A model generated the notes under the pieces. The model was not told the origin of the DNA. It saw only the letters and a list, made by a program, of their open reading frames with translations, and made no database searches. A stretch of 64,000 nt of DNA from Candidatus Gastranaerophilales bacterium (GTDB lineage: Bacteria; Cyanobacteriota; Vampirovibrionia; Gastranaerophilales; Gastranaerophilaceae), in NCBI GenBank assembly GCA_944324405.1, contig CALUWF010000001.1, forward strand, positions 310,001 to 374,000, in the 5' to 3' direction. Positions 26,670-44,095 of this stretch are shown one piece after another (positions within the stretch are counted from its first letter, which is position 1; every line of letters begins with the position of its first letter). The translations under genes were made by a program, and so were the position numbers.

Positions 26670-27050
26670 ATGGCACAATATTACCATCTGAATGTCTACA
26701 AAAAATCTTTTGACTTCCTTGTCAAAGTTACACAGCTAACATCGCGCTTCCAGCGCGATTTCAGGCACACATTGGGCGAAAAGTTAAATAACGGTACAAT
26801 AGAGCTTATTGTGTTGATATACAAAGCGAACTCCGCACAAGATATGGGTGAACGGGTTAATTACATAAAAGAGCTTCTGGAGAAGCTTCAATACATCAAT
26901 ATTATTTTGAGATTATCCTGCGAACTTCACAACATTTCACAGGAACGCTTTGCCGAACTTGCCCTTATGTCACAGGAAATTGAAAAGCAGCTCAACGGTT
27001 GGCTTTCGCACAGTTCAAAAGTTTTTGCGGATAAAAAAACTTCTTTATGA
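26670..27050 (+). CDS. avd: Avd-like accessory protein of a diversity-generating retroelement
   Basis: 126 residues, predicted all-helical and basic, of the four-helix-bundle / 23S-intervening-sequence protein type to which DGR accessory protein Avd belongs (YHLNVYKKSFDFLVKVTQL, then a long amphipathic helix with ELLEKLQYINIILRLSCELHNIS). In studied DGRs Avd forms a basic pentamer that binds the reverse transcriptase and template RNA. It overlaps the reverse transcriptase by 4 nt (ATGA), so the two proteins are made together. The preceding 210 bp are very AT-rich with no other feature seen. Confidence 0.85.
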   Translation: MAQYYHLNVYKKSFDFLVKVTQLTSRFQRDFRHTLGEKLNNGTIELIVLIYKANSAQDMGERVNYIKELLEKLQYINIILRLSCELHNISQERFAELALMSQEIEKQLNGWLSHSSKVFADKKTSL

Positions 27051-28219
27051 GTAAAAAAGTAACTGATACAACGATACCTCAGGCTGAATTCAGCCCTGAG
27101 GCGCTTTTTGAGGCATATTACGATTGCCGAAGACACAGACGTGCAAATATACAGGCTGTGGACTTTGAGTTTGATTTGGAAAAAAACATTTTTGAACTGT
27201 ACGAAGAAATCCTCAACGACTCATATCAGGTAGGGAAAAGCATTTGTTTTGTCGTAACTCTTCCAAAGCCGCGCGAAGTCTGGGCCGGAGCTTTTCGTGA
27301 CAGAATAATACACCACCTTATATACAATGCCATAAAAGACAGGTTTGACAAGGTTTTTATAGATGATGTATTTAGCTGCATTCCAAAACGCGGAACGCTA
27401 AAAGGTGCGCAAAAAGCCGCTTTTTATGCTAAAAAGCTCACAAAAAATTACACTCAAAAAGCTTATTTTATGAAAGCCGACATCTCAAACTTTTTCAACA
27501 GTATAGATAAAGAAATTCTCTTTGATGAAGTTCGCAAATATGTCTATGAGCCTTGGCTTGTGCGGCTCATTGAAAAAGTCCTCTTTCACAACCCCAGAAA
27601 CAACGTTTCTATGAAATCCCCAAAATGGCTCTTTGAGCAAGTTCCGGCCTACAAAAGTCTTTTTAACATTGATGCAAAAAAAGGTTTGCCTATCGGCAAT
27701 CTGACAAGCCAATTTTTTGCAAATGTTTATCTCAATCCGCTCGATCAATACGTAAAAAACGAACTAAAATGCAAATATTATTTAAGATACGTTGATGACA
27801 TACTTCTTTTACATCAAGACGCAGGCTGGCTCAATCAGGCGTATTCAAAGATAAACCGTTTTTTGCTTGATAATCTTGCTATGAGCCTAAATCACAGAAA
27901 AAAGAATATGAACCTCATCTGCCGCGGATTTGACTTTGTAGGACACATGGTAAAACCAAACCGCATATTTTTAAGAACAACAATAATAAAAAAATCTTTT
28001 GAAACAATTAAAAAATGGGAAAAAAATCCAAACCGCTTTTGCCCGGAAGAATTGGAGATATTCAGAAACAAAATAAACAGCTACCTTGGAATGTATAAGC
28101 ATATAAACGGCTACAACCTGCGCAAAAAAATCTGCATGCGGGCAACCACCCTTTTTACTCATCCGGATGAAGACTTTTCAAAAATAATAATTACAAATTA
28201 CAACGAAGAAAAAAAATAA
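27047..28219 (+). CDS. Reverse transcriptase, DGR type
   Basis: 390 residues. DGR hallmarks: PKPREVWAGAFRDRIIHHLIYN near residue 73, KADISNFFNSI, GLPIGNLTSQFFANVYLN (residues 213-230; the SQ version of the motif that is QGxxxSP in most other RTs), and the catalytic YVDD box at 248-251. There is no maturase, endonuclease or RNase H domain, unlike group II intron enzymes. DGR RTs copy a template-repeat RNA with errors at adenines and place the cDNA in a target gene. Here no conventional template repeat is visible nearby, while 32 silent versions of the target's variable segment lie 3 kb away. The gene is convergent with the target. Confidence 0.9.
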   Translation: MSKKVTDTTIPQAEFSPEALFEAYYDCRRHRRANIQAVDFEFDLEKNIFELYEEILNDSYQVGKSICFVVTLPKPREVWAGAFRDRIIHHLIYNAIKDRFDKVFIDDVFSCIPKRGTLKGAQKAAFYAKKLTKNYTQKAYFMKADISNFFNSIDKEILFDEVRKYVYEPWLVRLIEKVLFHNPRNNVSMKSPKWLFEQVPAYKSLFNIDAKKGLPIGNLTSQFFANVYLNPLDQYVKNELKCKYYLRYVDDILLLHQDAGWLNQAYSKINRFLLDNLAMSLNHRKKNMNLICRGFDFVGHMVKPNRIFLRTTIIKKSFETIKKWEKNPNRFCPEELEIFRNKINSYLGMYKHINGYNLRKKICMRATTLFTHPDEDFSKIIITNYNEEKK

Positions 28220-28358: not shown

Positions 28359-29686
28359 TTAATCGTCATATTTTATCCAATTTAAATACACATAGCCGTT
28401 TTGGCCGGCAGAACCGCCGCCGGGGTTCGGATAGTTTGTAGTATCCTCGCTCCAGCCGCCTCCGCCGCCGCCTGCGCCTGCGGCACCGTATTGAGCCGAG
28501 TCATAAACATTATTTGGCGCAACAAATACAACGGTTGAGCCGTTTACGTTTGTATTTGTGCAAACGGTGCTGTCAATAAAAAGACCGCCGCAGGAACCTT
28601 TTGTGCCAAGTCCGCTGTCACCTCCGACGCCGCCCGAGGAGCCGCCAAAGCCGTTTGTGCTTGTAAATGTCTTGCCGTCTTTTCCGGATGAACCGGCTTT
28701 TGAATCCAAATTGCTTGTATCCGTTGCGCTTGTGTAAACTCCGCCGCCTGCACCGCCTTTGCCTTGTACTGCATCAGAGCTTGAAGTTGCAGAAGTTCCC
28801 GCACTTCCTTTAGTTCCGCCCTTTAAGGTGTATGTGAGCGAATCAAAAGTTATTGAGGTTGCGCCGCCGTCAGCACCGTTTGAACCGACTCCGCCCGCTG
28901 CGCCTCCGCCGCCCACTCTGATTGTATATTCTACACCGGCGCTTACGGGGATATCTTTTATTATTGCAAAGGCTCCGCCGCCTCCGCCTCCTCCGCCCGC
29001 TGCGGGATAAACTATATCATATTGGATTTCGGCAATGCCGTTTGCGCCTCTGCCGCCTTTACCTTTGTATACGTTTGAGGTTGAGCCGGAGATTTGAAAT
29101 CTTACTGTTCCGCCTCCGCCACCTGCGCCATAGCGCGAACCGTCCATTCCGTTTTCACTGTTGCTGTCGCCGCCTGAGCCGCCGCCCGTGAATGAAGAGT
29201 AGTTATATGCGCTTCCGCCGCCTGCGCCGCCTGTGGCCGAGGTATTGCCTTCTTTTTCATAGTTGCCGTTCACACCGTTTGGGCCATAGCTTGAACAATC
29301 TCTGTTTACCCATGATGTTCCGTTGTATTCTCTGCAAGTATTTTGAGCTTTTTTGCCTCCGCCGTCACCATAATCCGATGAAGTCGCTCCTTTTCCGCCC
29401 AAGCCGCCGGGTACTTCAATACCCCATTTTAATTTTCCGCTTGCATCATTCACTTTGATTGATGAAGCGGCGCCGTTTGAACCGTCACCTGCTGCCGCGC
29501 CCGAGCTGCCTCCGGCGCTTCCGCCCGCGCCTCCGGCAGCTCCATAGAGTATAATCTCTCCTCCGATGTTTGATTCAATTACATTTTTTGGTATTTCGAG
29601 ATTTTTTATGTAAGGAGCGCCGCCGCCTCCGCCGCCGGCGAAAGTGTTAAAGCGTAGAGCCAATTTCTCCAGGACACAGCGACCGA
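28359..29686 (-). pseudogene. Glycine-rich C-terminal half of the variable surface protein, now out of frame
   Basis: This open frame has no start of its own. It continues the upstream gene if one base is restored at the edge of the variable segment (near 29682): the protein would then read AFSVRCVLEKLALRFNTFAGGGGGG and run on for about 440 residues. The region is strongly Gly/Ser/Ala-rich with many GGxGG blocks, two cysteine pairs, and a terminal VYLNWIKYDD. It resembles glycine-rich tails of tail-fibre and adhesin proteins. No stop interrupts it, so the loss of frame is recent, reversible, or bypassed. Restored, the full protein is about 823 residues (28359-30829). Confidence 0.7.
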
Positions 29687-30829
29687 AAAGGCACGAGTAA
29701 GCTCTGTAGCGCTGGCTAATATTAATTTGCTTCCTTCCATGGAATAAATTGCAACTCTGCCCTCGGTAGTGGTATTCGTGTAATACGCATGAGCGCAACA
29801 ACTTTTACCGGTAGCGTCACGACATAAGTTAACCCCGCAATGGCACCTTGGCGACCCCAAAGCGGAGGAGTTGCAGTCACAAAGTTGTAAACCGTCTGAG
29901 CCTAAATACTTCGATAATTTTGCATTATTAACACTGGACTCCGCGTTAATGACTGCTTGCCATCCTGTCATTTCCGCGTTAGTCGGTAATCTCCAGTCAC
30001 CTGCGTTTGTACCTTCCGGGTTCCACTGTGCACATGAATCACGTGCGGCTGTCCATTGACATACCGTCCTTGTACATCCGCTGTAATTACTGCTGTGCGT
30101 ACCCCATGTTCCGCTGTTTGTACAATTTGAGGAAGTCGTGCCCGACCAACAGCAGTTTGTGGAACTTGAAGGACAAGTTCCCGAGCCTGCCGTGAGTTTT
30201 GTAACTGTTGATGCCATTGTAGGGCCGTTTGGATCACCTACGTTGTATTTTGTAACGCAAGTATTTTTTCCGCCCGAGCCGTTCATTGATGCGGGGATAA
30301 ACATCGCATTATATTTGTTGCAGTCAGCCTGAGATTGCGGGGCGCCCTGCTGTTGGGTGTAGGCACCGCCTCCGCCGCCTCCGCCGCCTCCGGCGAGATA
30401 GCTTATTGTAACATTTTTCATATTTTTGGTTATTTTAATTGTCTTTGTTTGCGAACTTCCTATTGATGAGTTTGCAGCATAGCTTTTTTGATCGAGCGAT
30501 ACGGTGGGAGTTGTCGCGCCCGCTCCTCCTCCGCCGCCTGATACCATTACAGCGCTTATTGAACTTACTCTGTTTGGAACAGTGAATTTACAATCAACCG
30601 CATTGGGGTCATCTGCCGCAGCCGAGCAGTCTGTAGCGAATTTGTCATACAAGAAAAGCTGACCTTCTGTCTTGTAACTAATATTTGCACGTTCTTTTAC
30701 TCTTTTTGTCAGAACAGGTGCAAAGAGTGTCAATATTATTGATATAATAAGAATTGCGACCAAAAGTTCAGCCAGAGTAAATGCGTTTTTCTTCAAACGC
30801 CAAAAGCCTGTTTTCATCATAAAATTCAC
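29606..30829 (-). CDS. Prepilin-anchored variable surface protein with C-type-lectin-like domain (expression site)
   Basis: 407 residues in the present frame, from a GTG at 30829 with AGGA 8 nt upstream. The N-terminus is a type IV prepilin signal (KKNAFTLAELLVAILIISIILTL) for export and assembly or anchoring. Glycine-rich blocks (residues about 90-150) and a Cys/Ser/Thr-rich part follow. Then comes a domain with WRLPTNAEM (Trp279), as in DUF1566 / Fib_succ_major C-type-lectin folds that DGRs commonly diversify. Its last third (about 319-381) is the variable segment and is identical to silent cassette 28. One base is missing just after it (TCGGTCGC instead of TCGGTTCGC), so the protein ends with 26 unrelated residues. 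It is convergent with the reverse transcriptase and divergent from the array. Confidence 0.8.
   Translation of the reverse strand: MNFMMKTGFWRLKKNAFTLAELLVAILIISIILTLFAPVLTKRVKERANISYKTEGQLFLYDKFATDCSAAADDPNAVDCKFTVPNRVSSISAVMVSGGGGGAGATTPTVSLDQKSYAANSSIGSSQTKTIKITKNMKNVTISYLAGGGGGGGGGAYTQQQGAPQSQADCNKYNAMFIPASMNGSGGKNTCVTKYNVGDPNGPTMASTVTKLTAGSGTCPSSSTNCCWSGTTSSNCTNSGTWGTHSSNYSGCTRTVCQWTAARDSCAQWNPEGTNAGDWRLPTNAEMTGWQAVINAESSVNNAKLSKYLGSDGLQLCDCNSSALGSPRCHCGVNLCRDATGKSCCAHAYYTNTTTEGRVAIYSMEGSKLILASATELTRAFSVAVSWRNWLYALTLSPAAEAAALLT
29688..29874 (-). repeat. Expressed variable segment, identical to cassette 28
   Basis: The 187 bp read on the minus strand match plus-strand 38485-38671 without a mismatch in my base-by-base comparison. 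The first differences on either side are A in the cassette versus T here (29875 and 29687), and 1 nt is missing near 29682. Beyond the shared CTTTGTGAC word homology stops, so exchange was limited to the cassette unit. Confidence 0.9.
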
Positions 30830-31282
30830 CGATTATTCCTCAAAAGCTACTCTTATAACATTAAAAAATTATTGATATATAACCTACAATATAACATATT
30901 TGTTTTTAATTTCAACCATGAATTATAATTATAAAAATAATTGTAACATTTGATGGAAAAAGTACTTAAAATATGTTAAAATCGGTCATTGATAGTTAAT
31001 TTTGCACGTTGACAATTGAATATTAAATTCACTGATTTATATTAAATATATCGGAATTTCCGATATTGATTAAACACTCCTTAGAGCGGTATGTTTCACG
31101 GAACATGCCGGAGAAGGTATTAAACTCGTTTTAAGGTAGCGGCAGAATGATACGCCGCTTAAGCTGTATACGGTTAACACATCGGACGTGCTTTATGAAA
31201 AGCGGCTTCATTTTATATTATGAAGCCGCAAAGTACGGCCGAGTGGCTTTTGGCTTTTAGCATACTGAAAACCTTAAATAAA
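30830..31282. promoter_or_regulatory. Control region between target gene and cassette array
   Basis: This gene-free stretch holds, in order: an AT-rich region that must carry the minus-strand promoter of the variable protein; a perfect -35 word TTGACA (31009-31014, plus strand) with only weak -10 candidates after it; a 17-nt palindrome TATCGGAA-T-TTCCGATA (31049-31065), a possible operator; RNA-like element E1; and a 10-bp hairpin GCGGCTTCAT...ATGAAGCCGC (31202-31229). A plus-strand transcript entering the array is plausible but not shown. Confidence 0.45.
31077..31163 (+). ncRNA. Structured RNA-like element E1, at the head of the array
   Basis: First of three related copies (with 37654-37738 and 39875-39955). 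Paired parts: CCTTA (31079-31083) with TAAGG (31132-31136); GAG with CTC; CGGTATGTT (31087-31095) with AACATGCCG (31102-31110); AGCGGC (31138-31143) with GCCGCT (31154-31159). The unpaired words GAG-A/C-AGG and TAAACTCGTT are conserved in all copies, while the stems change in compensating fashion. I do not recognise the family. The strand is inferred from its lead position before plus-strand cassettes. Confidence 0.6.
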
Positions 31283-34200
31283 CTTTGTGACTGGTGCGAC
31301 TTCGCTTATGGGTCGGTTCTTTGTTTTTATTCGATGGACAGCTGCCCGGGCGCACGGTTTGATTCAAAGTCAGATAATGCTTGCTATCCTTATGACTTAT
31401 GGGCAGGCTCTGACACCATGTTTCAGCTTTGCAGCGGTAATGCTTTCACCAGAGTCGCTACACCTGATTATGCCATTTCGGCGCGCTGTGTCCGGTATTT
31501 AATAAAAATGTGTTTATTGTATAGAGTAAACTTTAAAAAACTTTGTGACAACAACTCCTCCGATTTGGGGTCGATAATGTGCTTAATGGGTTATCCGTTA
31601 TGCCTCGGTACACCCAATAATAACAAATGCGGACCGCAAGACTATTTGACAGGAAATTTACATGGCACTAATGTTTGGTATTATACACTTTCCAGGGGTA
31701 AATTTGCTCAACATAATACTTTGTCAATGAAAGAAGCCTTTTCGGCGCGCTGTGTCCGGTATTTAATAAAAATGTGTTTATTGTATAGAGTAAACTTTAA
31801 AAAAACTTTGTGACCACGGCTCCTCCTCTAAGGGGTCGCTAAAGTGTTTTTGCGGGTCTTCTTCTTCCTGCAAAGGCAGTTATGACGACAAATGTCATAC
31901 TCATAACTATTGGTCGGGCAGTGCTACAGGAGAGAAATATTACGCCGCCAATTTGGATTCGGGCTCTTGGGTACGCTCGCCAAATCCCTCCGGATATCCC
32001 TTTTCGGCTCGCTGTGTCCGGTATTTAATAAAAAATGTGTTTACTTATACAATAAAACCTTAAAAAAACTTTGTGACTGGTACTCCTCCGCTTATGGGTC
32101 GGTATACTGTTCTTGGAATATAAGGTGTCCCGGGGCGCTAAGCGATTTAAGCACATCGGGAGATTGCAATATTCATGGGCATTGGTCACAGACGGCTTCA
32201 GGCGGCAGCTATTATGATTTAGGGCTTGGCGAGGGGCGTGCGCAATTGTATTTGAAAAAGCCGGGCTATGCCTTTTCGGTTCGCTGTGTCCGGTATTTAA
32301 TGAATTTGTGTTTATTTATACAATAAAACCTTAAAATAACTTTGTGAGCGCGGCTCCCCCGCTTGGGGGTCTGTGTATTGCGGAAGTACCCCTACCCCCG
32401 GGTGTTATGGCGCCCTTAATACGAACTGCGATCCCGCCTTTATATGGAGCTCGACTATGTCCGGCAACGGTTATCGCTATTTGTGGCTGCATAACAACGT
32501 TTGTTATATCGATACAGTTTCGGCCAATGACTCCTTTTCGGCCCGCTGTGTCCGGTATTTAATGAATTTGTGTTTACTTATACAATAAAACCTTAAAAGA
32601 ACTTTGTGACCGTTACTCCTCCTCTTTGGGGTCGCTGCATTGCCAACCGTCCGGCGGGTGCTTGGGCGCGGTTAATCCAAGCTGTGATGCGGCGTTTATT
32701 TGGAACTCGAGTATGGATGGCAGCAATTATCACTATATGAGACTGGATAACGGCGTTATTTATCACTCTGCACATTCGGCCAATGACTCCTTTTCGGCTC
32801 GCTGTGTCCGGTATTTAATTAATTTGTGTTTAGTTATGCAATAAAACCTTAAAAGAACTTTGTGACTACTCCTCCGCTTATGGGTCGATTTGGTGTCAAA
32901 GTTCAGGACTTTGCAGGGGCGCATCAGATGGCTGCTGTTACAGTAACACCTATTGGACTCTGACAGTACAGGGCACAAACCACTGGGAGTTCCATCTTAT
33001 TTTCGGTGAAATAGGAGACAATAAATGGGACGCTCGTTATGCCTTTTCGGTCGCTGTGTCCGGGGCTTAAAAAAACGTGTTTATAGTATATGGTAAACTT
33101 TAAAATAACTTTGTGACTGGTACTCCTCCGCTTATGGGTCGATTTGGTGCTATAGCAAAGAGTACACTTGTCTTGGCGCGCAGTCTGATACGGGTTATAC
33201 CGGCTCTTGCCACCCGCTTGATGTATGGTCAGAGTGTACGGGCGCAAACACCTGTTTGTTTTTTCAGCTTGGTAGCGGCAAATTTGTAATCAACTCGCGT
33301 AATATGCGTTATGCCTTTTCGGTTCGCTGTGTCCTGTAGCTTAATAAAAAAAATGTGTTTATTGTGTATAAAAGCCTTAAAATAACTTTGTGACCTCAAC
33401 TCCTCCTCTTTGGGGTCGCTTATGTGCTTAAGTACAGCGAATTTGTGCTATGGAGCAGTTGCTGACCCGAGTTTTGCCCATGGCTGTTACTCTTTTGCCA
33501 TTTGGTCAAGCACCCCTTCAAGCAGCGGCCGTTATTATGACCTGTGTGTTTGGAACGGCAGGGGGCAAATTTTAGAGCGTCCTGCGGGCTATGCCTATTC
33601 GGTTCGCTGTGTCCGGTATTTAATAAAAAATGTGTTTACTTATACAATAAAACCTTAAAAAGACTTTGTAACGGCTACTCCTCCGCCTTGGGGTCGATAT
33701 TTTGCTTTGACGGGGTGAGTCTTTGTCGCGGCAGCGGCTCGGACGGCGTTACTGTCGACAATTGTGCTGTTCATGATGTGTGGTCAGGCACCGCTGGTGG
33801 CGGCGGGTATTATTTTTTGTTTAACTATCATGTTCTAACCGCACAAAACTCATATCCCGCAAATTTTGCCTTTTCGGCCCGCTGTGTCCGGAGGTTAAGA
33901 GAAAATGTGTTTATAGTAGGCAGTAAGCTTTAAATTGACTTTGTGACAGTCACTCCTCCGCTAATGGGTTGATATACTGTTGGGATGGGCCGTACCGTTG
34001 TCTTGGCAGCTGGGGGAAAAATGGCGAGCAGCATCGCTGCTATGTTCATAATATTTGGTCAAGTACACCCGGGGGCTATGGCTATTATGTTTTGTTCAAT
34101 TACGCAGGTTCATCGGCGGATGTAACATCTGACCCTGTGTGTGCCTTGTCGGCTCGCTGTGTCCTGTAGCTTAATGAAATTGTGTTTATTATGTATAAAA

Positions 34201-37200
34201 ACCTTAAAAAGACTTTGTGACGGCGGCTCCTCCGCTATGGGGTTGTGCAGATGTTATATGGCTACTACTTGCCTTGGGGCGTATAGTTCAGCTTGCCAGA
34301 CTGACAACCTTTGGGCGATAACCCAGGGCAGCACAGGATATTATTATCTTACGTTGAATTACGGCGAAGTAAACGTTAGATCAGTTAACCTGCCATATGC
34401 CGCCTTTTCGGCTCGCTGTGTCCGGTATTTGATGAAATTGTGTTTATTGTGTATAAAAACCTTAAAAAACTTTGTGACTGGATCTCCTCCTCTTTGGGGT
34501 CGATATACTGTCCTATTGATACAAGGTGTCCCGGGGCGCTGAGCGATTCAGGTACATCGGGAGATTGTTATAGGCATGCGCATTGGTCACAAACAGCTTC
34601 AGGTAATGGCTATTATGATTTAGGGCTTGGCGATGGGCATGCGCAATTGTATTTGAGAAAGCCGGGCTATGCCTTTTCGGTTCGCTGTGTCCGGAGGTTA
34701 AGAGAAATTGTGTTTATAGTAGGCAGTAAGCTTTAAAATAACTTTGTGACACGCACTCCTCCTCTTTGGGGTCGCTACAGTGTTACAACCACGGTACCAA
34801 TTGCCCCGGGGCGCTTAGTGACGGTGGCGTTGTCGGACGCTGCCATCCTCACGATTTATGGTCAGGCTCAGTGTCAGGTGCTACTCACTACTTTTTTCTT
34901 ATGGGCAATGGCAAACTGGTTGGGAAAAACCCTTATTGTACGCCTCGTTATGCCTTTTCGGTTCGCTGTGTCCCGTAGCTTAATAAAATTGTGTTTATAG
35001 TATATGGTAAGCTTTAAATTAACTTTGTGACCAAGACTCCTCGGCTTCGGGGTCGATAAGATGTTATTGCGGTTCTAAATACGGCTGTAACGGGAGTATT
35101 GACGGCGGGCGTGCCCATGCCCATCATTTCTGGTCGGGCACTCCTGTAGGAGGGCACTATTATGCAGGCCAGATGAGTTCCGCTTCTCTCACGGTGCCAA
35201 ACCTAAATCCGAGATACGCCTTTTCGGCTCGCTGTGTCCGGTATTTGATAAAATTGTGTTTATTTATACAATAAAACCTTAAAATAACTTTGTGACGGCA
35301 GCTCCTCCGCTTCGGGGCTGTGCAAATGTTACAATGCCACTACTTGCCTTGGGGCGTATAGTTCAGCTTGCCAGACTGACAACCTTTGGGCAATAACTCA
35401 GGGCAGCACAGGATATTATTATCTTACGCTGGTTTATGGCAAAGCATCCGTTAAATCGGTTAATCTGCCGCATGCGGCCTATTCGGTTCGCTGTGTCCCG
35501 TAGCTTAATAAAATGTGTTTATAATATGCAGAAAACTTTAAAAAACTTTGTGACTACAGCTCCTCCTCTAAGGGGTCGCTTTGCTGCAATGGCGGGTTGT
35601 ATTGTCTTGGAGGGATTAATCTTCAATGCGACCCGAATGAAATTTGGTCAAGTGTACTCAAACAAAGTGACCGCTATTATGCCCTTAGGATAGCAGGCGG
35701 CAACGTAAGCTTTCCAGACCGAGGAATGAGGGACACCTTGTCGGTTCGCTGTGTCCTGTAGCTTAATAAAATGTGTTTATTGTATAGAGTAAGCTTTAAA
35801 ATAACTTTGTGACCACAGCTCCTCCGCCTTGGGGTCGATAAGCTGCTATCATAAAACGCTTACCTGCCTTGGTGCACAATATGACCCGGGGTATACTTAT
35901 GCCTGCTATCCGCTTGACATATGGGCACAGTGCACAAGTTCAAACGCCTGTTTGTTTTTTCAATTGGGTTTTGGGAAGCTTTTATTAAGTTCGCGGACGC
36001 CGGGATATGCCTTTTCGGTTCGCTGTGTCCGGAGGTTAAGAGAAATTGTGTTTATCTTATAAAGCAAACCCTAAATAAACTTTGTGACATCAACTCCTCC
36101 GCTGCGGGGTCGCTTAGGTGCGATATACGCGTTAGTTCCTGTATTGGCTCAATGGAAAATTCATGCCGAAGTTTTGATGTCTGGACAGGAAATGCATACG
36201 GCAGCACATATTACTATTATCATTTACAATACGGCGGATTAACAAGAGGTGTGCGTGAGCCGATTGACGCCTTTTCGGCTCGCTGTGTCCCGTAGCTTAA
36301 TGAAATTTGTGTTTAAGTATATGGTAAGCTTTAAAATAACTTTGTGACTGGGACTCCTCCGCTTCGGGGTCGGTTGTATGCTCCTTTCACCTTACGGCTT
36401 GCAAAGGCGCTTATGGCGGGTATTGCCATGCGCATGGCATATATTCCCTTAATGGTGATGGCAGCAGCGCGTATGTGTTTGCATTAGATAACGGCAAGTG
36501 CGGTGTAAACTTTCACACAGTTAAGCGCGCCTATTCGGCTCGCTGTGTCCGGTATTTAGTAAAAATGTGTTTATTGTGTATAAAAAACTTTAAAATAACT
36601 TTGTGACCGCGACTCCTCCTCTAAGGGGTCAATTAGATGTTACAGCGGCCCGGATTGCCTTGGCGGCGAGAATGAGCACTGTGACCCTTTCGGTTATTGG
36701 TCAGGCAGTGCCCAATCAAGCAACGTCTATTACTATCTTCGATTTATTGACGGAGAGGTCGGGTTTAGGTCTATAACCGCAAGGGAAACCTTTTCGGCTC
36801 GCTGTGTCCGGTATTTAGTAAAAATGTGTTTATAATATGCAGAAAACTTTAAAAGTACTTTGTGACAGCGACACCTCCGTTATGGGGTCGATTATGTGCA
36901 ATTGGGGCCCTTCGCGCTGTAATGGAGGCCATGGGAACGTTTGCTACCCGCAAAACTATTGGACAGGCACAAATTCAGGGAGTTATGCCTGCCTGTTTGA
37001 CGAAGGGGGGCTTCGCTGTGCAAATACATACTTGCTAACGCATTGCTTTTCGGTTCGCTGTGTCCGGTATTTAATTAAAAATGTGTTTATAGTATATGGT
37101 AAGCCTTAAAATAACTTTGTGACCACGGCTCCTCCGCCTTGGGGTCGATAAGCTGCTATCATAAAACGCTTACCTGCCTTGGTGCACAATATGACCCGGG

Positions 37201-37606
37201 GTATACTTATGCCTGCTATCCGCTTGACATATGGGCACAGTGCACAAGTTCAAACGCCTGTTTGTTTTTTCAATTGGGTTTTGGGAAGCTTTTATTAAGT
37301 TCGCGGACGCCGGGATATGCCTTTTCGGTTCGCTGTGTCCTGTAGCTTAATGAAATTGTGTTTATAATATGCAGAAAACTTTAAAAGAACTTTGTGACCA
37401 CGGCTCCTCCGCTTTGGGGCAGCCAAGATGTTACAGGCACAGTTCCGCATGTCCGGGAGCTATGAGCGATTGGACTAATGCACCTGTTTGCAATCCGCAT
37501 GACGTATGGACAGGCCCTGCCGCATATTATTTTAGTATGGTTAACGGAAAATACGGCGGCCCGGTGCAAGCGCATGGGAGATATGCCTTTTCGGCTCGCT
37601 GTGTCC
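31283..37606 (+). repeat. Silent variable-segment cassette array, block 1 (cassettes 1-24)
   Basis: Twenty-four units, each from CTTTGTGAC to CGCTGTGTCC, starting at 31283, 31541, 31806, 32069, 32340, 32602, 32858, 33108, 33386, 33664, 33939, 34213, 34470, 34742, 35023, 35288, 35546, 35805, 36080, 36340, 36599, 36858, 37115 and 37390. Units are about 200-230 bp, with spacers of about 50 bp. Each encodes the pattern LCDxxSSxxGSxxC ... CxGA ... C..HDxW[TS]G ... YY ... G ... FS[AV]RCV, that is, the last third of the lectin-like domain with conserved cysteines. They have no start signal or promoter, and most end at a stop in the spacer. Cassettes 18 and 23 are identical over 213 bp; 12/16 and 4/13 are mosaic relatives. 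Confidence 0.9.
37128..37340 (+). repeat. Cassette 23, exact copy of cassette 18
   Basis: These 213 bp equal 35818-36030. The bases just before differ by one A/G change (35817 A, 37127 G) inside the NNC codon after CAC; the 15 bases before that agree again. The tails after GTGTCC differ (GGAGGTTAAG against TGTAGCTTAAT). The core therefore moved between different spacer contexts, which is further evidence of cassette-level copying. Confidence 0.9.
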
Positions 37607-37758
37607 GGTATTTAATTAAAAATGTGTTTAGTTTACAATAATATTTAAAACACACCTCAGAGCGGATTGTATCAAGGTATAATCCGGAGCAGGAAAATAA
37701 ACTCGTTTAAGATAGCGGCAGAAGATATACCGCTTAAGTTAATAAAATCTTAAAAAAA
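37607..37758 (+). ncRNA. Structured RNA-like element E2, splitting the array
   Basis: Second copy of the element; the core is 37654-37738. Paired parts: GAG (37660-37662) with CTC (37702-37704); CGGATT (37663-37668) with AATCCG (37681-37686); AGCGG (37714-37718) with CCGCT (37730-37734). The outer CCTCA helix seen in E1 and E3 is weak here. It leads directly into short cassette 25. Confidence 0.6.
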
Positions 37759-37874
37759 CTTTGTGACTGCAACTCCTCCGCTTAGGGGTCGCTTATACGT
37801 TATGTAGTAAGCGCCGCTATCCCCTGACGTTGGCAACCGCTGCCAGCCGGTGTGCCTTTTCGGTCGCTGTGTCC
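37759..37874 (+). repeat. Cassette 25, short degenerate unit with edges like the expressed gene
   Basis: Only 116 bp. Its left edge GACTGCAACTCCTCC and right edge TTTTCGGTCGCTGTGTCCTGG, including the 1-nt deletion, match the expressed gene's edges rather than those of most cassettes. The core carries stops and does not encode a lectin segment. It may be a decayed unit or a product of a failed exchange that copied the expression-site edges. Confidence 0.7.
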
Positions 37875-37930
37875 TGGTGTTTATTTTATGTGTTTTTCTA
37901 TACAGTAAAGCCCTAATAAAATTGTAAGGA

Positions 37931-39768
37931 CTTTGTGACGCATACTCCTCCGCTTTGGGGTCGCCAAGGTGCCTCTACATTCAAAGCTGCTCAGGCGCAC
38001 CGAATGCCTATTGCTACCCTTACGCCCATTGGACTTCTGCCCCTTGGAATACGCCCACTACACATTATTGGGACAAGCTAATGTTAAACGGCGGACTTGC
38101 TAACGACTCACAGCCCCTTACGGTGCCCTTGTCGGTTCGCTGTGTCCTGTAGCTTAATAAAAATGTGTTTAATTATACGGTAAACTCTTAAATAAACTTT
38201 GTGACCTCTACTCCTCCGCTTTGGGATCTGCGCAGTGTTTTCTTGGCGTAGATATGTGCAAAGGTGCCCTTAGCGACGGCGGACGGCCGTATGTGTGTTA
38301 CCCTCATCACCTGTGGACATGCACTTCGGCAAACGGAGGGTTTGCATGGGGAGCCTTAGACACGGGGCTATTCTTGCCTACCGCTACAGCCTATCAGACA
38401 GGCTTTGCCTTTTCGGTCGCTGTGTCCGGTATTTAATAAAAATTGTGTTTTTATACAGTGAAGCTTTAAATTGACTTTGTGACAGCAACTCCTCCGCTTT
38501 GGGGTCGCCAAGGTGCCATTGCGGGGTTAACTTATGTCGTGACGCTACCGGTAAAAGTTGTTGCGCTCATGCGTATTACACGAATACCACTACCGAGGGC
38601 AGAGTTGCAATTTATTCCATGGAAGGAAGCAAATTAATATTAGCCAGCGCTACAGAGCTTACTCGTGCCTTATCGGTTCGCTGTGTCCGGTATTTAATAA
38701 AAATTGTGTTTTTATACAGTGAAGCTTTAAATTGACTTTGTGACGCATACTCCTCCGCTTCGGGGTCATCAAGGTGCTATTGCGGATTTAATTTATGCCA
38801 CGGTGCTATCCCAAACAGTTGTTGCGCCCATGCGTATTACACAGGCACTTTGACAGGTAATAGTGTTAAGCTTTATACCTTACAGGAGAGCCGGTTGTTA
38901 TTAGCCAACGCTACAGAGCTAACTCTTGCCATTTCGGTTCGCTGTGTCCGGTATTTAATAAAAATTGTGTTTATTTTATACGGTGAAGCTTTAAAATAAC
39001 TTTGTGACGCCTACTCCTCCGCTTTGGGGTCGGTTCAGTGCTGGCCTTATGAGGGCAATTGCCCGGGCGCTGTTGACACTGACGGTTATACCGGACGCTG
39101 TCACCCGCATGACACGTGGACAGGCACCTATGAGTCAAATAAACGCTATTTTGTCATATTGCAAGACGGTACTTTATCTCTTGTAGGGCCGCGCTATGAT
39201 AGTCGTTACGCCTTTTCGGCCCGCTGTGTCCTGTAGCTTAATGAAATGTGTTTATCTATACGGTGAAGCCATAAAATACTTTGTGACTACGACTCCTCCG
39301 CCAAGGGGTCGATGATATGTTATTGCGGGAAGGCTTCTACATGCAGAGGCACCCCCGACGGGCTTTCTCATGCCCATCATATCTGGTCAAGCAGCTCCAC
39401 GGGAGGAAACTATTATACGGGTAATTTAAATTATTCTTCCATGACGGTAAGGGGTTTTGGCCCCAAATACGCCTATTCGGTTCGCTGTGTCCTGTAGCTT
39501 AATAAAATGTGTTTATCTATACGGTGAAGCCATAAAATACTTTGTGACATGTCCTCCTCCGCCTTGGGGTCGCCAAGGTGTCTGAATATTCGTGTCTGTT
39601 ACGGCTCTGTCGGTGATTACGGTTCCGCTGACCCTTGCCACCCTCATGATGTATGGTCAGGCACTTATTCAGGTAATATGCGCACATTTTTTAACCTGGC
39701 AGGGGGCAGTTGGATTCGCGCCATCGACAGTGCTACAGTGCGTTATGCCTTTTCGGCCCGCTGTGTCC
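37931..39768 (+). repeat. Silent cassette array, block 2 (cassettes 26-32)
   Basis: Seven full units starting at 37931, 38197, 38475, 38736, 39000, 39279 and 39540, with the same edge words, spacers and encoded pattern as block 1. Cassette 28 (38475-38688) is the current donor match of the expressed gene. Cassettes 28 and 29 are partial relatives. Cassette 27 carries the TCGGTCGC deletion found in the expressed gene. Spacers here tend to read TATACAGTGAAGC or TATACGGTGAAGC, slightly unlike block 1, so the block may have grown separately by local duplication. Confidence 0.9.
38485..38671 (+). repeat. Donor-identical core of cassette 28
   Basis: The 187 bp are identical to the expressed variable segment at 29688-29874 (inverted). 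About 46 adenines on the coding strand are all unchanged, so this transfer was faithful rather than adenine-mutagenic within the core. Confidence 0.92.
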
Positions 39769-40026
39769 GGGATTTAATAAAATGTGTTTTTTCTGTGAGA
39801 TTTTAACGGCTATACAAAGGCTAAAACAACATCTTGATAATTTAGAAAAAAAACGTTAAACTTAAGTTTGGATATCCTCAGAGTGCGAGAATTTACGGAT
39901 TTTTGCAGAGCAGGATAACTAAACTCGTTATGAGGTAGCCTGAATAATACGGCTTAAAAAATATTTGTTCAACCCTCATAGGTATGCTGCCGCCTTTTCG
40001 GTCGCTGTGTCCTGGAGTTTGGAAGT
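39769..40026 (+). ncRNA. Structured RNA-like element E3 and terminal cassette fragment
   Basis: Third copy of the element (core 39875-39955). Paired parts: CCTCA (39876-39880) with TGAGG (39931-39935); GAG with CTC (39924-39926); TGCGAGAAT (39884-39892) with ATTTTTGCA (39899-39907); AGCC (39937-39940) with GGCT (39951-39954). About 35 bp later a lone right edge GCCTTTTCGGTCGCTGTGTCCTGGAG (39991-40016) appears without a cassette core; it matches the expressed gene's right edge. The rest holds no gene. Confidence 0.55.
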
Positions 40027-40053
40027 TTAAGACCTCTTTTTGAGGTCTTTTTT
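40027..40053 (+). terminator. Terminator closing the cassette array
   Basis: AAGACCTC-TTTTT-GAGGTCTT, an 8-bp stem, with a run of Ts, directly after the last cassette fragment. It suggests the array or element E3 is transcribed on the plus strand. Confidence 0.85.
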
Positions 40054-43724: not shown

Positions 43725-43810
43725 AATAAAGTTAATTTTAGTGTATAAAAAGCATAAATACAACTTGGCTGCATGACAAAATTGCTGTAGAATAAGTGGT
43801 GATTGAAGTA

Positions 43811-44022
43811 TTGATAATTGAATAATTGTATTTAATGCGGAAGTAACTCCTTTGCAAAGCAAACGCGGCTTGTCCGCAATGGCCAATTGAGTTACGATAA
43901 AGATTGATAATTGAATAATTGTATTTAATGCACAAGTAACTCCTTTGCAAAGCAAACGCGGCTTGTCCGCAATGACCAATTGAGTTACGATAAAGATTGA
44001 TAATTGAATAATTGTATTTAAT
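43811..44022. repeat. Tandem 93-bp repeat derived partly from the tRNA-Gly 5' end
   Basis: Two full units (43811-43903 and 43904-43996) and the start of a third that runs into the tRNA. Each unit holds TTGATAATTGAATAATTG, then a copy of the tRNA start (GCGGAAGTAACTC, changed to GCACAAGTAACTC in unit 2), then about 30 bp of unrelated sequence and the inverted word CCAATTGAGTTAC, the reverse complement of the tRNA D-arm. GTAACTC/GAGTTAC make each unit a potential hairpin. It looks like a small element inserted in a duplicated tRNA start. Confidence 0.8.
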
Positions 44023-44095
44023 GCGGAAGTAACTCAATTGGTAGAGTCCCTGCCTTCCAAGCAGGTTGTTGCGAGTTCGAGCCTCGTCTTCCGCT
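44023..44095 (+). tRNA. tRNA-Gly (anticodon TCC)
   Basis: Acceptor GCGGAAG pairs with CTTCCGC (44088-44094). The anticodon stem CCTGC/GCAGG encloses loop CTTCCAA, anticodon TCC. The T-arm holds GTTCGAG, the family constant. CCA is not encoded. It reads glycine GGA/GGG codons. Confidence 0.93.

What the first reader, a model, noticed from the sequence alone, without database searches (positions are those of the whole stretch)
37759..40016. Structured elements E2 and E3 are followed by truncated copies with the expression site's own edges
Seen: after E2 comes a 116-bp unit with edges GACTGCAAC and TCGGTCGCTGTGTCCTGG, and after E3 a bare right edge ending CCTGGAG. Both match the expressed gene (TGGAG tail and 1-nt deletion) rather than the usual cassettes. 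Inference: an RNA made of the element plus target-edge sequence could act as an address that directs exchange to the expression site, or these are footprints of the displaced expression copy.
Basis: partly seen in the sequence, partly recalled or inferred. Interest (0 to 1): 0.7.

Follow-up and report, generated by a model that had tools for sequence, protein, structure and literature searches.

The report
Retroelement template leaders with guide loops
In an uncultured gut bacterium, a known kind of gene-diversifying retroelement appears to have grown from one template into a library of about thirty, each fronted by a short tag that matches a loop in a folded RNA leader, which suggests how one machine could choose among many spare versions of a surface pilin.

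Summary
The locus is a diversity-generating retroelement (DGR): Avd and a DGR-type reverse transcriptase beside a prepilin gene. Same-genus relatives carry an adenine-rich template and adenine-specific target changes (14 of 14 and 20 of 21 substitutions). In the window that template is replaced by 31 open, adenine-poor cassettes; one matches the expressed copy over 187 nt.

E1-E3 are copies of a covarying structured element that leads templates in three genera. A variable loop in each pairs with a box just before the template it serves (g1 permutation 0/50,000; supported in g53; two g38 cases). E1's loop fits 28 of 32 array boxes; E3's fits its own.

E2 plus the 116-bp unit is a leader with a decayed original template; its tail is TGGTG, not TGGAG. 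E3 plus bare edge is a conserved terminal unit (5 of 5 same-genus genomes with clear elements), always with the 1-nt deletion and TGGAG, ending in a terminator. Its edge equals the local target's in 2 of 3 testable genomes. The deletion throws a 440-codon C-terminal region out of frame, so the unit may write an 'off' edge into the target: inferred, not shown.

The parts
26670..27050 (+). Avd-like protein (bAvd)
   Evidence: Pfam PF22296 E 9.6e-12 above its cutoff; NCBIfam DivGenRetAVD 2e-11, below its cutoff
27047..28219 (+). DGR-type reverse transcriptase (IGNLTSQ and YVDD motifs)
   Evidence: Pfam RVT_1 4.7e-17; best solved relative 8ub7_A 1.9e-32; motifs invariant in the 11-row alignment A3
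28359..29801 (-). C-terminal Gly-rich region of the target gene, out of frame with the variable domain because of the 1-nt deletion
   Evidence: Pfam Gly_rich_2; 440 codons open after the edge
29606..30829 (-). target gene: prepilin N-terminus, Lcl_C/DUF1566-like domain, variable repeat
   Evidence: N_methyl motif; relatives' domain matches Lcl_C weakly, below cutoff
29617..29643 (-). 27-nt GC-rich hairpin sequence downstream of the target edge, identical in 5 of 5 reverse-transcriptase-adjacent targets
29667..29885 (-). expressed variable repeat: left edge GACTGCAAC, 187-nt core identical to cassette 38475, right edge TCGGTCGCTGTGTCCTGGAG
31068..31180 (+). E1, leader element of the array; loop TTTAAGGT at 31130-31137
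   Evidence: R1 bits 77.7; loop-box pairing
31271..31278 (+). box ACCTTAAA in front of the first cassette, complementary to the E1 loop; 28 of 32 array units have a box that fits
31283..39768 (+). array of 31 full cassettes plus the 116-bp unit; 0 of 31 with a stop in the coding frame, 28-31 of 31 in each other frame
37644..37755 (+). E2, leader of the old template; loop TTTAAGAT at 37706-37713
   Evidence: R1 bits 82.1
37747..37754 (+). box ATCTTAAA, complementary to the E2 loop
37759..37874 (+). 116-bp unit: internally truncated template repeat with target-like edges, followed by TGGTGTTTA
38475..38688 (+). donor cassette of the present expressed copy
   Evidence: 187-nt identity; next best cassette 30 nt
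39865..39975 (+). E3, terminal element; loop TTATGAGG at 39928-39935
   Evidence: R1 bits 90.9
39974..39981 (+). box CCTCATAG, private to E3
39998..40017 (+). bare right edge TCGGTCGCTGTGTCCTGGAG of the terminal unit
40029..40049 (+). terminator-like stem-loop that ends the template locus

Best explanation
This is a DGR whose template locus has been amplified into a library. Shown by sequence: E1, E2 and E3 are copies of one structured leader RNA, and each leader has a variable loop complementary to a short box that lies directly in front of the template it serves. E1 fits nearly all the cassettes of the array. E2 fronts the decayed remnant of the original single template. E3 fronts only a box, a target-type right edge and a terminator. 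Inferred: the reverse transcriptase-Avd complex binds the leader; the loop-box helix brings one template to it and sets the 5' end of the cDNA, so one leader can serve any of about 28 cassettes by looping out those in between; the cDNA then replaces the variable repeat of the neighbouring pilin gene. Inferred with less confidence: the E3 unit is an 'empty template' that supplies the 3' edge of the target, including the 1-nt deletion that puts the C-terminal region out of frame, so it keeps the target recognisable and switches its long form off until a template with the full edge rewrites it.
For: DGR: Avd and RT. Adenine-specific differences between template and target: G014 14 of 14, G004 20 of 21, G269 20 of 22. 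Leader RNA: compensatory changes at 18 of 22 pairs with 0 of 500 shuffles as high, and at 10 of 21 pairs on an alignment not fitted to structure. The leader precedes a template or array in g1, in 11 of 11 g53 elements with downstream sequence, and in both g38 genomes. Loop-box pairing: g1 13 elements, 0 of 50,000 permutations; 9 distinct, 1 of 50,000; g53 16 elements, 86 of 50,000; g38 examined after the rule was set: G269 34 of 20,000 shuffles over 15 nt or 131 of 20,000 over 45 nt, G058 666 of 20,000. In the window the E1 loop fits 28 of 32 boxes and the E3 loop 1 of 32, with 14% of control windows for each. Terminal unit: found in 5 of 5 same-genus genomes with clear element matches, always with the deletion and TGGAG, against 0 of 7 template edges. 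The target's 3' edge equals the terminal edge, not the donor's, in G000 and G004. Deletion in 4 of 5 RT-adjacent targets and 0 of 10 dispersed ones. The out-of-frame region stays open in 5 of 5 genomes and has dN/dS 0.19 between G004 and G014.
Against: G014's terminal edge does not match its target. Dispersed targets never carry the deletion (0 of 10), 6 of them with the same TGGAG flank, which an edge-writing unit that acts in trans should sometimes change. g53 and g38 have leaders but no terminal unit was seen. The window's own expressed copy shows no adenine mutation in 46 adenines, so use of the reverse transcriptase there is not shown. Some loop-box matches are weak: G003_Er and G005_E1 5 units, L089 3 units, and the first 11 g53 elements alone give 6,192 of 50,000 by permutation. 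The g1 pairing was noticed by eye before it was tested. G012's deletion is at a different base of the edge (TCGTCCGC), so not all deletions come from one written edge.
Confidence: 0.55

Rival explanations
1. Ordinary homologous gene conversion: the cassettes are a silent library, as in pilS or vls systems, and host recombination copies them into the pilin gene; the reverse transcriptase and the elements are relics of the ancestral DGR in this species.
For: 187 nt with 46 adenines are copied unchanged; at the 28% change rate assumed there, no change in 46 adenines has P 2.7e-7. Cassettes are adenine-poor (3.3 AAY codons on average against 13-18 in relatives' templates).
Against: RT and Avd are intact in the window. 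Loop and box are complementary for all three window elements. A second array-bearing genus, g53, keeps one RT and many leaders. A less mutagenic copying step would look the same.
Confidence: 0.33
2. The E3 unit is a recipient site, not a template: target-type edge plus stem-loop is the anatomy of a DGR homing site, so new cassettes could land there and the array could grow.
For: Target-type edge followed by a stem-loop in the terminal unit; RT-adjacent targets 5 of 5 have a strong hairpin after the edge, while the 7 dispersed variable repeats folded and most template edges do not (the template edge of G005 folds at -6.4). In BPP-1 an edge plus hairpin directs homing (PMC3240598, passages).
Against: The stem-loop is followed by a T run and is explained as a transcription terminator. 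No full cassette follows the terminal element in any of 5 genomes.
Confidence: 0.2
3. Passive remnant: E2 and E3 are template units that lost their middle by deletion; the edge is like the target's because target and template edges share ancestry, and the target simply keeps its own edge at each rewriting.
For: The E2 unit is clearly truncated and has an in-frame TAG (read). A remote leader in G003, whose RT is a remnant, also lost its template. In known DGRs the target keeps its own edge (recalled).
Against: E3's edge is conserved at 0.94 against 0.70 for its spacer in four genomes; its loop and box covary with each other separately from the template's.
Confidence: 0.25
4. Footprint of a displaced expression copy.
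For: The E2 unit shares both edges with the present target.
Against: The E3 unit lies in the same place with the same tail and a terminator in 5 genomes; it holds no displaced coding sequence.
Confidence: 0.05

Closest known systems
Diversity-generating retroelements (Bordetella phage BPP-1 type)
   Same: RT of the DGR motif class, Avd, template repeat, variable repeat in a Lcl_C/DUF1566-like domain, adenine-specific changes in relatives, target edge that differs slightly from template edge, hairpin downstream of the target edge
   Different: About 31 adenine-poor templates in one array instead of one adenine-rich template; conserved structured leader 5' of the templates with a loop that pairs with a template box; terminal leader with only an edge; variable repeat lies inside the protein and its edge can shift the frame. 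In BPP-1 the structured RNA is 3' of the template (PMC12875486, passages)
Silent-cassette antigenic variation (Neisseria pilE/pilS, Borrelia vlsE)
   Same: One expressed surface gene (here a pilin) and an array of silent, open, partial copies; exact segment transfer
   Different: Array sits in a DGR locus with RT, Avd and structured leaders; no RT is part of those systems (recalled)
DGRs with trans-acting or multiple templates
   Same: A template far from the target can rewrite it (here 195 kb; trans activity is argued in PMC10907252, passages); a DGR with 6 template repeats is described in PMC6642488 (passages)
   Different: No leader elements, no loop-box code and no tandem template library in the passages read

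Membership tests
DGR | reverse transcriptase of the DGR class | tested here: met
   IGNLTSQ and YVDD invariant; best solved relative 8ub7_A, 1.9e-32 (that this entry is the BPP-1 DGR complex is recalled)
DGR | Avd accessory protein next to the RT | tested here: met
   PF22296 above cutoff
DGR | template repeat and variable repeat that differ mainly at template adenines | tested here: inconclusive
   Met in relatives G014, G004 and G269; in the window itself the expressed copy and its donor do not differ at the 46 adenines of the core
DGR | edge (IMH) at the 3' end of the variable repeat, slightly different from the template edge | tested here: met
   TCGGTCGC..TGGAG against TCGGTTCGC..TGGTG in G004; window target against cassettes
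DGR | hairpin-forming repeat downstream of the target edge | tested here: met
   27-nt GC-rich sequence identical in 5 of 5 RT-adjacent targets; the 7 dispersed variable repeats folded lack a strong hairpin
DGR | structured spacer RNA 3' of the template that recruits the RT | tested here: inconclusive
   A conserved structured element is found 5' of templates; whether it plays that part was not testable
Silent-cassette gene conversion | exact segmental transfer from a silent copy to the expression site | tested here: met
   187-nt identity to one cassette
Silent-cassette gene conversion | dependence on host recombination and not on an RT | not testable with these tools
   needs knock-outs
Rfam families | match to a described RNA family | tested here: not met
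   only a tRNA reached a gathering score in the window

The most novel reading that the evidence does not exclude
A DGR that has turned from random mutation to choice from a library: a leader RNA selects one of some thirty stored templates by base-pairing between its loop and a box in front of each template, separate loop-box codes keep different leaders in one transcript apart, and an empty terminal template switches the target off by writing a one-base frameshift into its edge.
Probability: 0.33. Interest if true: 0.92.

Novelty: new variant of a known kind. Interest (0 to 1): 0.76.

Why it matters
If true, it links two strategies that are usually kept apart, random mutation by a retroelement and selection from a stored library, inside one family of machines, with relatives that use one adenine-rich template still at hand for comparison. 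It names a testable RNA code for template choice, which would also be a handle for programming DGRs, and it offers a way in which a DGR could switch its own target on and off by the edge it leaves behind.

Tried and rejected
AlphaFold2 of the target's variable domain with 9 rows gave mean pLDDT 35 and was not used; no fold search was run. Model R1 did not match 20 viral DGR loci (20 of the 80 kept) or the four more distant cellular DGR loci L032-L035, so the element is not general to DGRs. Three weak R1 matches in the genus (G007, G002, G008; E 0.026 to 0.097) were not counted as elements. Matches of R1/R2 in G120 and G089 look like rpoC coding sequence when read by eye (recalled, not tested) and are counted as false; the G120 match was in the alignment from which R2 was built. 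A first loop-box script clipped the boxes of E2 and E3 and was replaced. An anchor rule for g53 boxes chosen after inspection gave 101 of 50,000 but chose wrong places in several new elements; the uniform rule is the one relied on. Adenine-biased differences between the most similar cassette pairs of the window were looked for and not seen. Element-plus-edge as displaced expression copy: see rivals. The viral collection held one match to the edge pattern, not followed up. Structure prediction of the RT, RNA folding of whole transcripts and metagenome scans were not done.

The genomes are related, so its Fisher values are not independent tests. G012's target edge is read from a contig that starts 15 nt before it. 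Targets of G005, G003, G008 and G010 are missing from their assemblies at the edge, so the edge co-variation test rests on 3 genomes. Elements L082 and L081 (7-114) have no downstream sequence and were left out of the g53 tests. My note 5 says 6 dispersed repeats were folded; one search shows 7.

Full report
What the locus is. The window holds an Avd-like protein (26670-27050) and a reverse transcriptase of the DGR class (27047-28219), then on the opposite strand a prepilin gene, then an array of 31 open cassettes plus one short unit on the + strand.

Relatives show the ancestral state. In G014 and G004 the same place holds a leader element, one adenine-rich template repeat, a second element, a short right edge and a terminator. 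In G004 the target next to the RT differs from that template at 21 sites, 20 of them template adenines, plus the 1-nt deletion; in G014 it differs from a template 195 kb away at 14 sites, all adenines. A third genus, G269 (g38), has 20 of 22 at adenines. So these are working DGRs by sequence, and one template can act in trans. Both genomes also have dispersed targets (6 examined in G014, 4 in G004).

The window differs. Its cassettes are poor in adenine codons (mean 3.3 AAY against 13-18 in five relatives' templates), and so are those of G073 in a second genus (1.1), while G102 keeps 5-13. None of 31 cassettes has a stop in the coding frame, against 28 to 31 of 31 in each of the five other frames, and 29 of 31 have lengths of 1 modulo 3. 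The expressed copy is identical to one cassette (38475) over 187 nt, with 46 adenines unchanged; the next best cassette shares 30 nt. This is a template library, whether copied by the RT with little mutation or by host recombination.

The elements. A covariance model finds three elements in the window, three each in G004 and G014, two each in G005 and G003, 8 in G073 and 10 in G102, and one each in G269 and G058. Across 26 sequences 18 of 22 pairs show changes on both sides, 91% of cells pair, and no shuffle of 500 does as well; slid controls pair in 36-50%. That alignment is fitted to the model; on an independent alignment of 13 sequences 10 of 21 pairs have compensatory changes. No Rfam family matches. 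Of 286 genomes sampled from the order, 5 match R1, all in this family.

The address. Between the conserved AAACTCGT and TAGC each element of the window's genus has a variable loop. Its complement lies 3-5 nt in front of the template's left edge (leader type) or 15-20 nt in front of TCGG (terminal type and one remnant): TTTAAGGT/ACCTTAAA for E1, TTTAAGAT/ATCTTAAA for E2, TTATGAGG/CCTCATAG for E3, TTTGAGA/TCTCAAG for G014 and G004 leaders, TGTGAGG/CCTCACA for G005's terminal element. Own pairs beat permuted pairs in all of 50,000 permutations for 13 elements and in all but one for 9 distinct ones. I noticed this by eye before testing. Checked afterwards: G269, TGCAGGGT/ACCTTGCA two bases before the edge (34 of 20,000 shuffles of 15 nt; 131 of 20,000 of 45 nt); G058, TCGGAGT/ACTCCGA (666 of 20,000); g53, 16 elements with one uniform region, 86 of 50,000 permutations, though the first 11 alone reach only 6,192 of 50,000. 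In the window E1's loop fits 28 of 32 boxes at 6 units or more, E2's 13, E3's 1; control windows reach this in 14%, 5% and 14%.

What E2 and E3 are. E2 with the 116-bp unit keeps the flank TGGTGTTTA that follows templates in relatives, so it is most simply the original leader and template, decayed by an internal deletion. It carries the target's left edge and the deletion, and an in-frame TAG. E3 with the bare edge corresponds to the terminal unit of G014, G004, G005 and G003: same element subtype, own loop and box, the edge with the deletion and TGGAG in 5 of 5, then a stem-loop. Template-type edges carry neither in 7 of 7. The edge is conserved at 0.94 against 0.70 for the spacer in the four genomes whose RT is not a remnant, and has two further changes in G003, whose RT is a remnant.

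Does the edge follow the local target? In G000 and G004 the target's last bases (GCCTTTTCGGTCGC; GCCGGTTCGGTCGC) equal the terminal edge and differ from the donor (GCCTTATCGGTTCGC; GCCGATTCGGTTCGC). In G014 they do not; there the whole end equals the remote template, which has no terminal unit. The other genomes lack one side in their assemblies. Two of three, with the exception explained, is support but not proof. The deletion is present in 4 of 5 RT-adjacent targets and in 0 of 10 dispersed ones. It puts 440 codons out of frame in the window; that region stays open in all five genomes and evolves under constraint (dN/dS 0.19 between G004 and G014), so the long form must be made at times. In G073 and G102 the target is in frame. 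RT-adjacent targets also share a 27-nt GC-rich hairpin sequence after the edge, identical in 5 of 5 although synonymous sites elsewhere are near saturation between most of them.

Literature. I read passages, not whole papers: PMC12875486, PMC8144416, PMC3240598, PMC3521204, PMC6642488, PMC10907252, PMC10053308. Searches of the held library listed no paper on a DGR template array with leaders or on a DGR in Gastranaerophilales; subscription journals are mostly not held, so this is weak evidence of absence.

Verdict. DGR identity is close to certain for the locus; the leader RNA and the loop-box pairing are well supported; the terminal unit is a conserved, probably functional part; that it writes the target's edge and so switches the gene is the least certain step.

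Noticed in passing
window 35805-36030 and 37115-37340: Two cassettes differ at one base in 226 although 1.3 kb apart, a sign of recent copying within the array.
   Followed up: no
L079-L085 (G073): About 60 right-edge matches in six contigs of one genome in genus g53, with one RT found; a dispersed set of adenine-poor arrays.
   Followed up: partly
g53 loci L081, L083, L085, L086, L088, L089: Between leader and array lies a motif GACACAGYGCAC or similar, close to the reverse complement of the template's right edge, which could pair the two ends of a template.
   Followed up: no
L058 in G014, L059 in G004: Second template loci far from the RT with their own leader, and several dispersed prepilin-like targets with in-frame edges.
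   Followed up: partly
L235 (G058): Leader element starts 11 bases after the RT gene on the same strand, with a template that is not adenine-rich.
   Followed up: no
window 43810-44095: 93-bp tandem repeats that resemble the end of a tRNA gene, just before an intact tRNA; similar repeats stand near the locus in G014 and G004.
   Followed up: no
L037 (G012), 16-34: The target edge has a 1-nt deletion at a different base (TCGTCCGC), which suggests that the out-of-frame state has arisen more than once.
   Followed up: no
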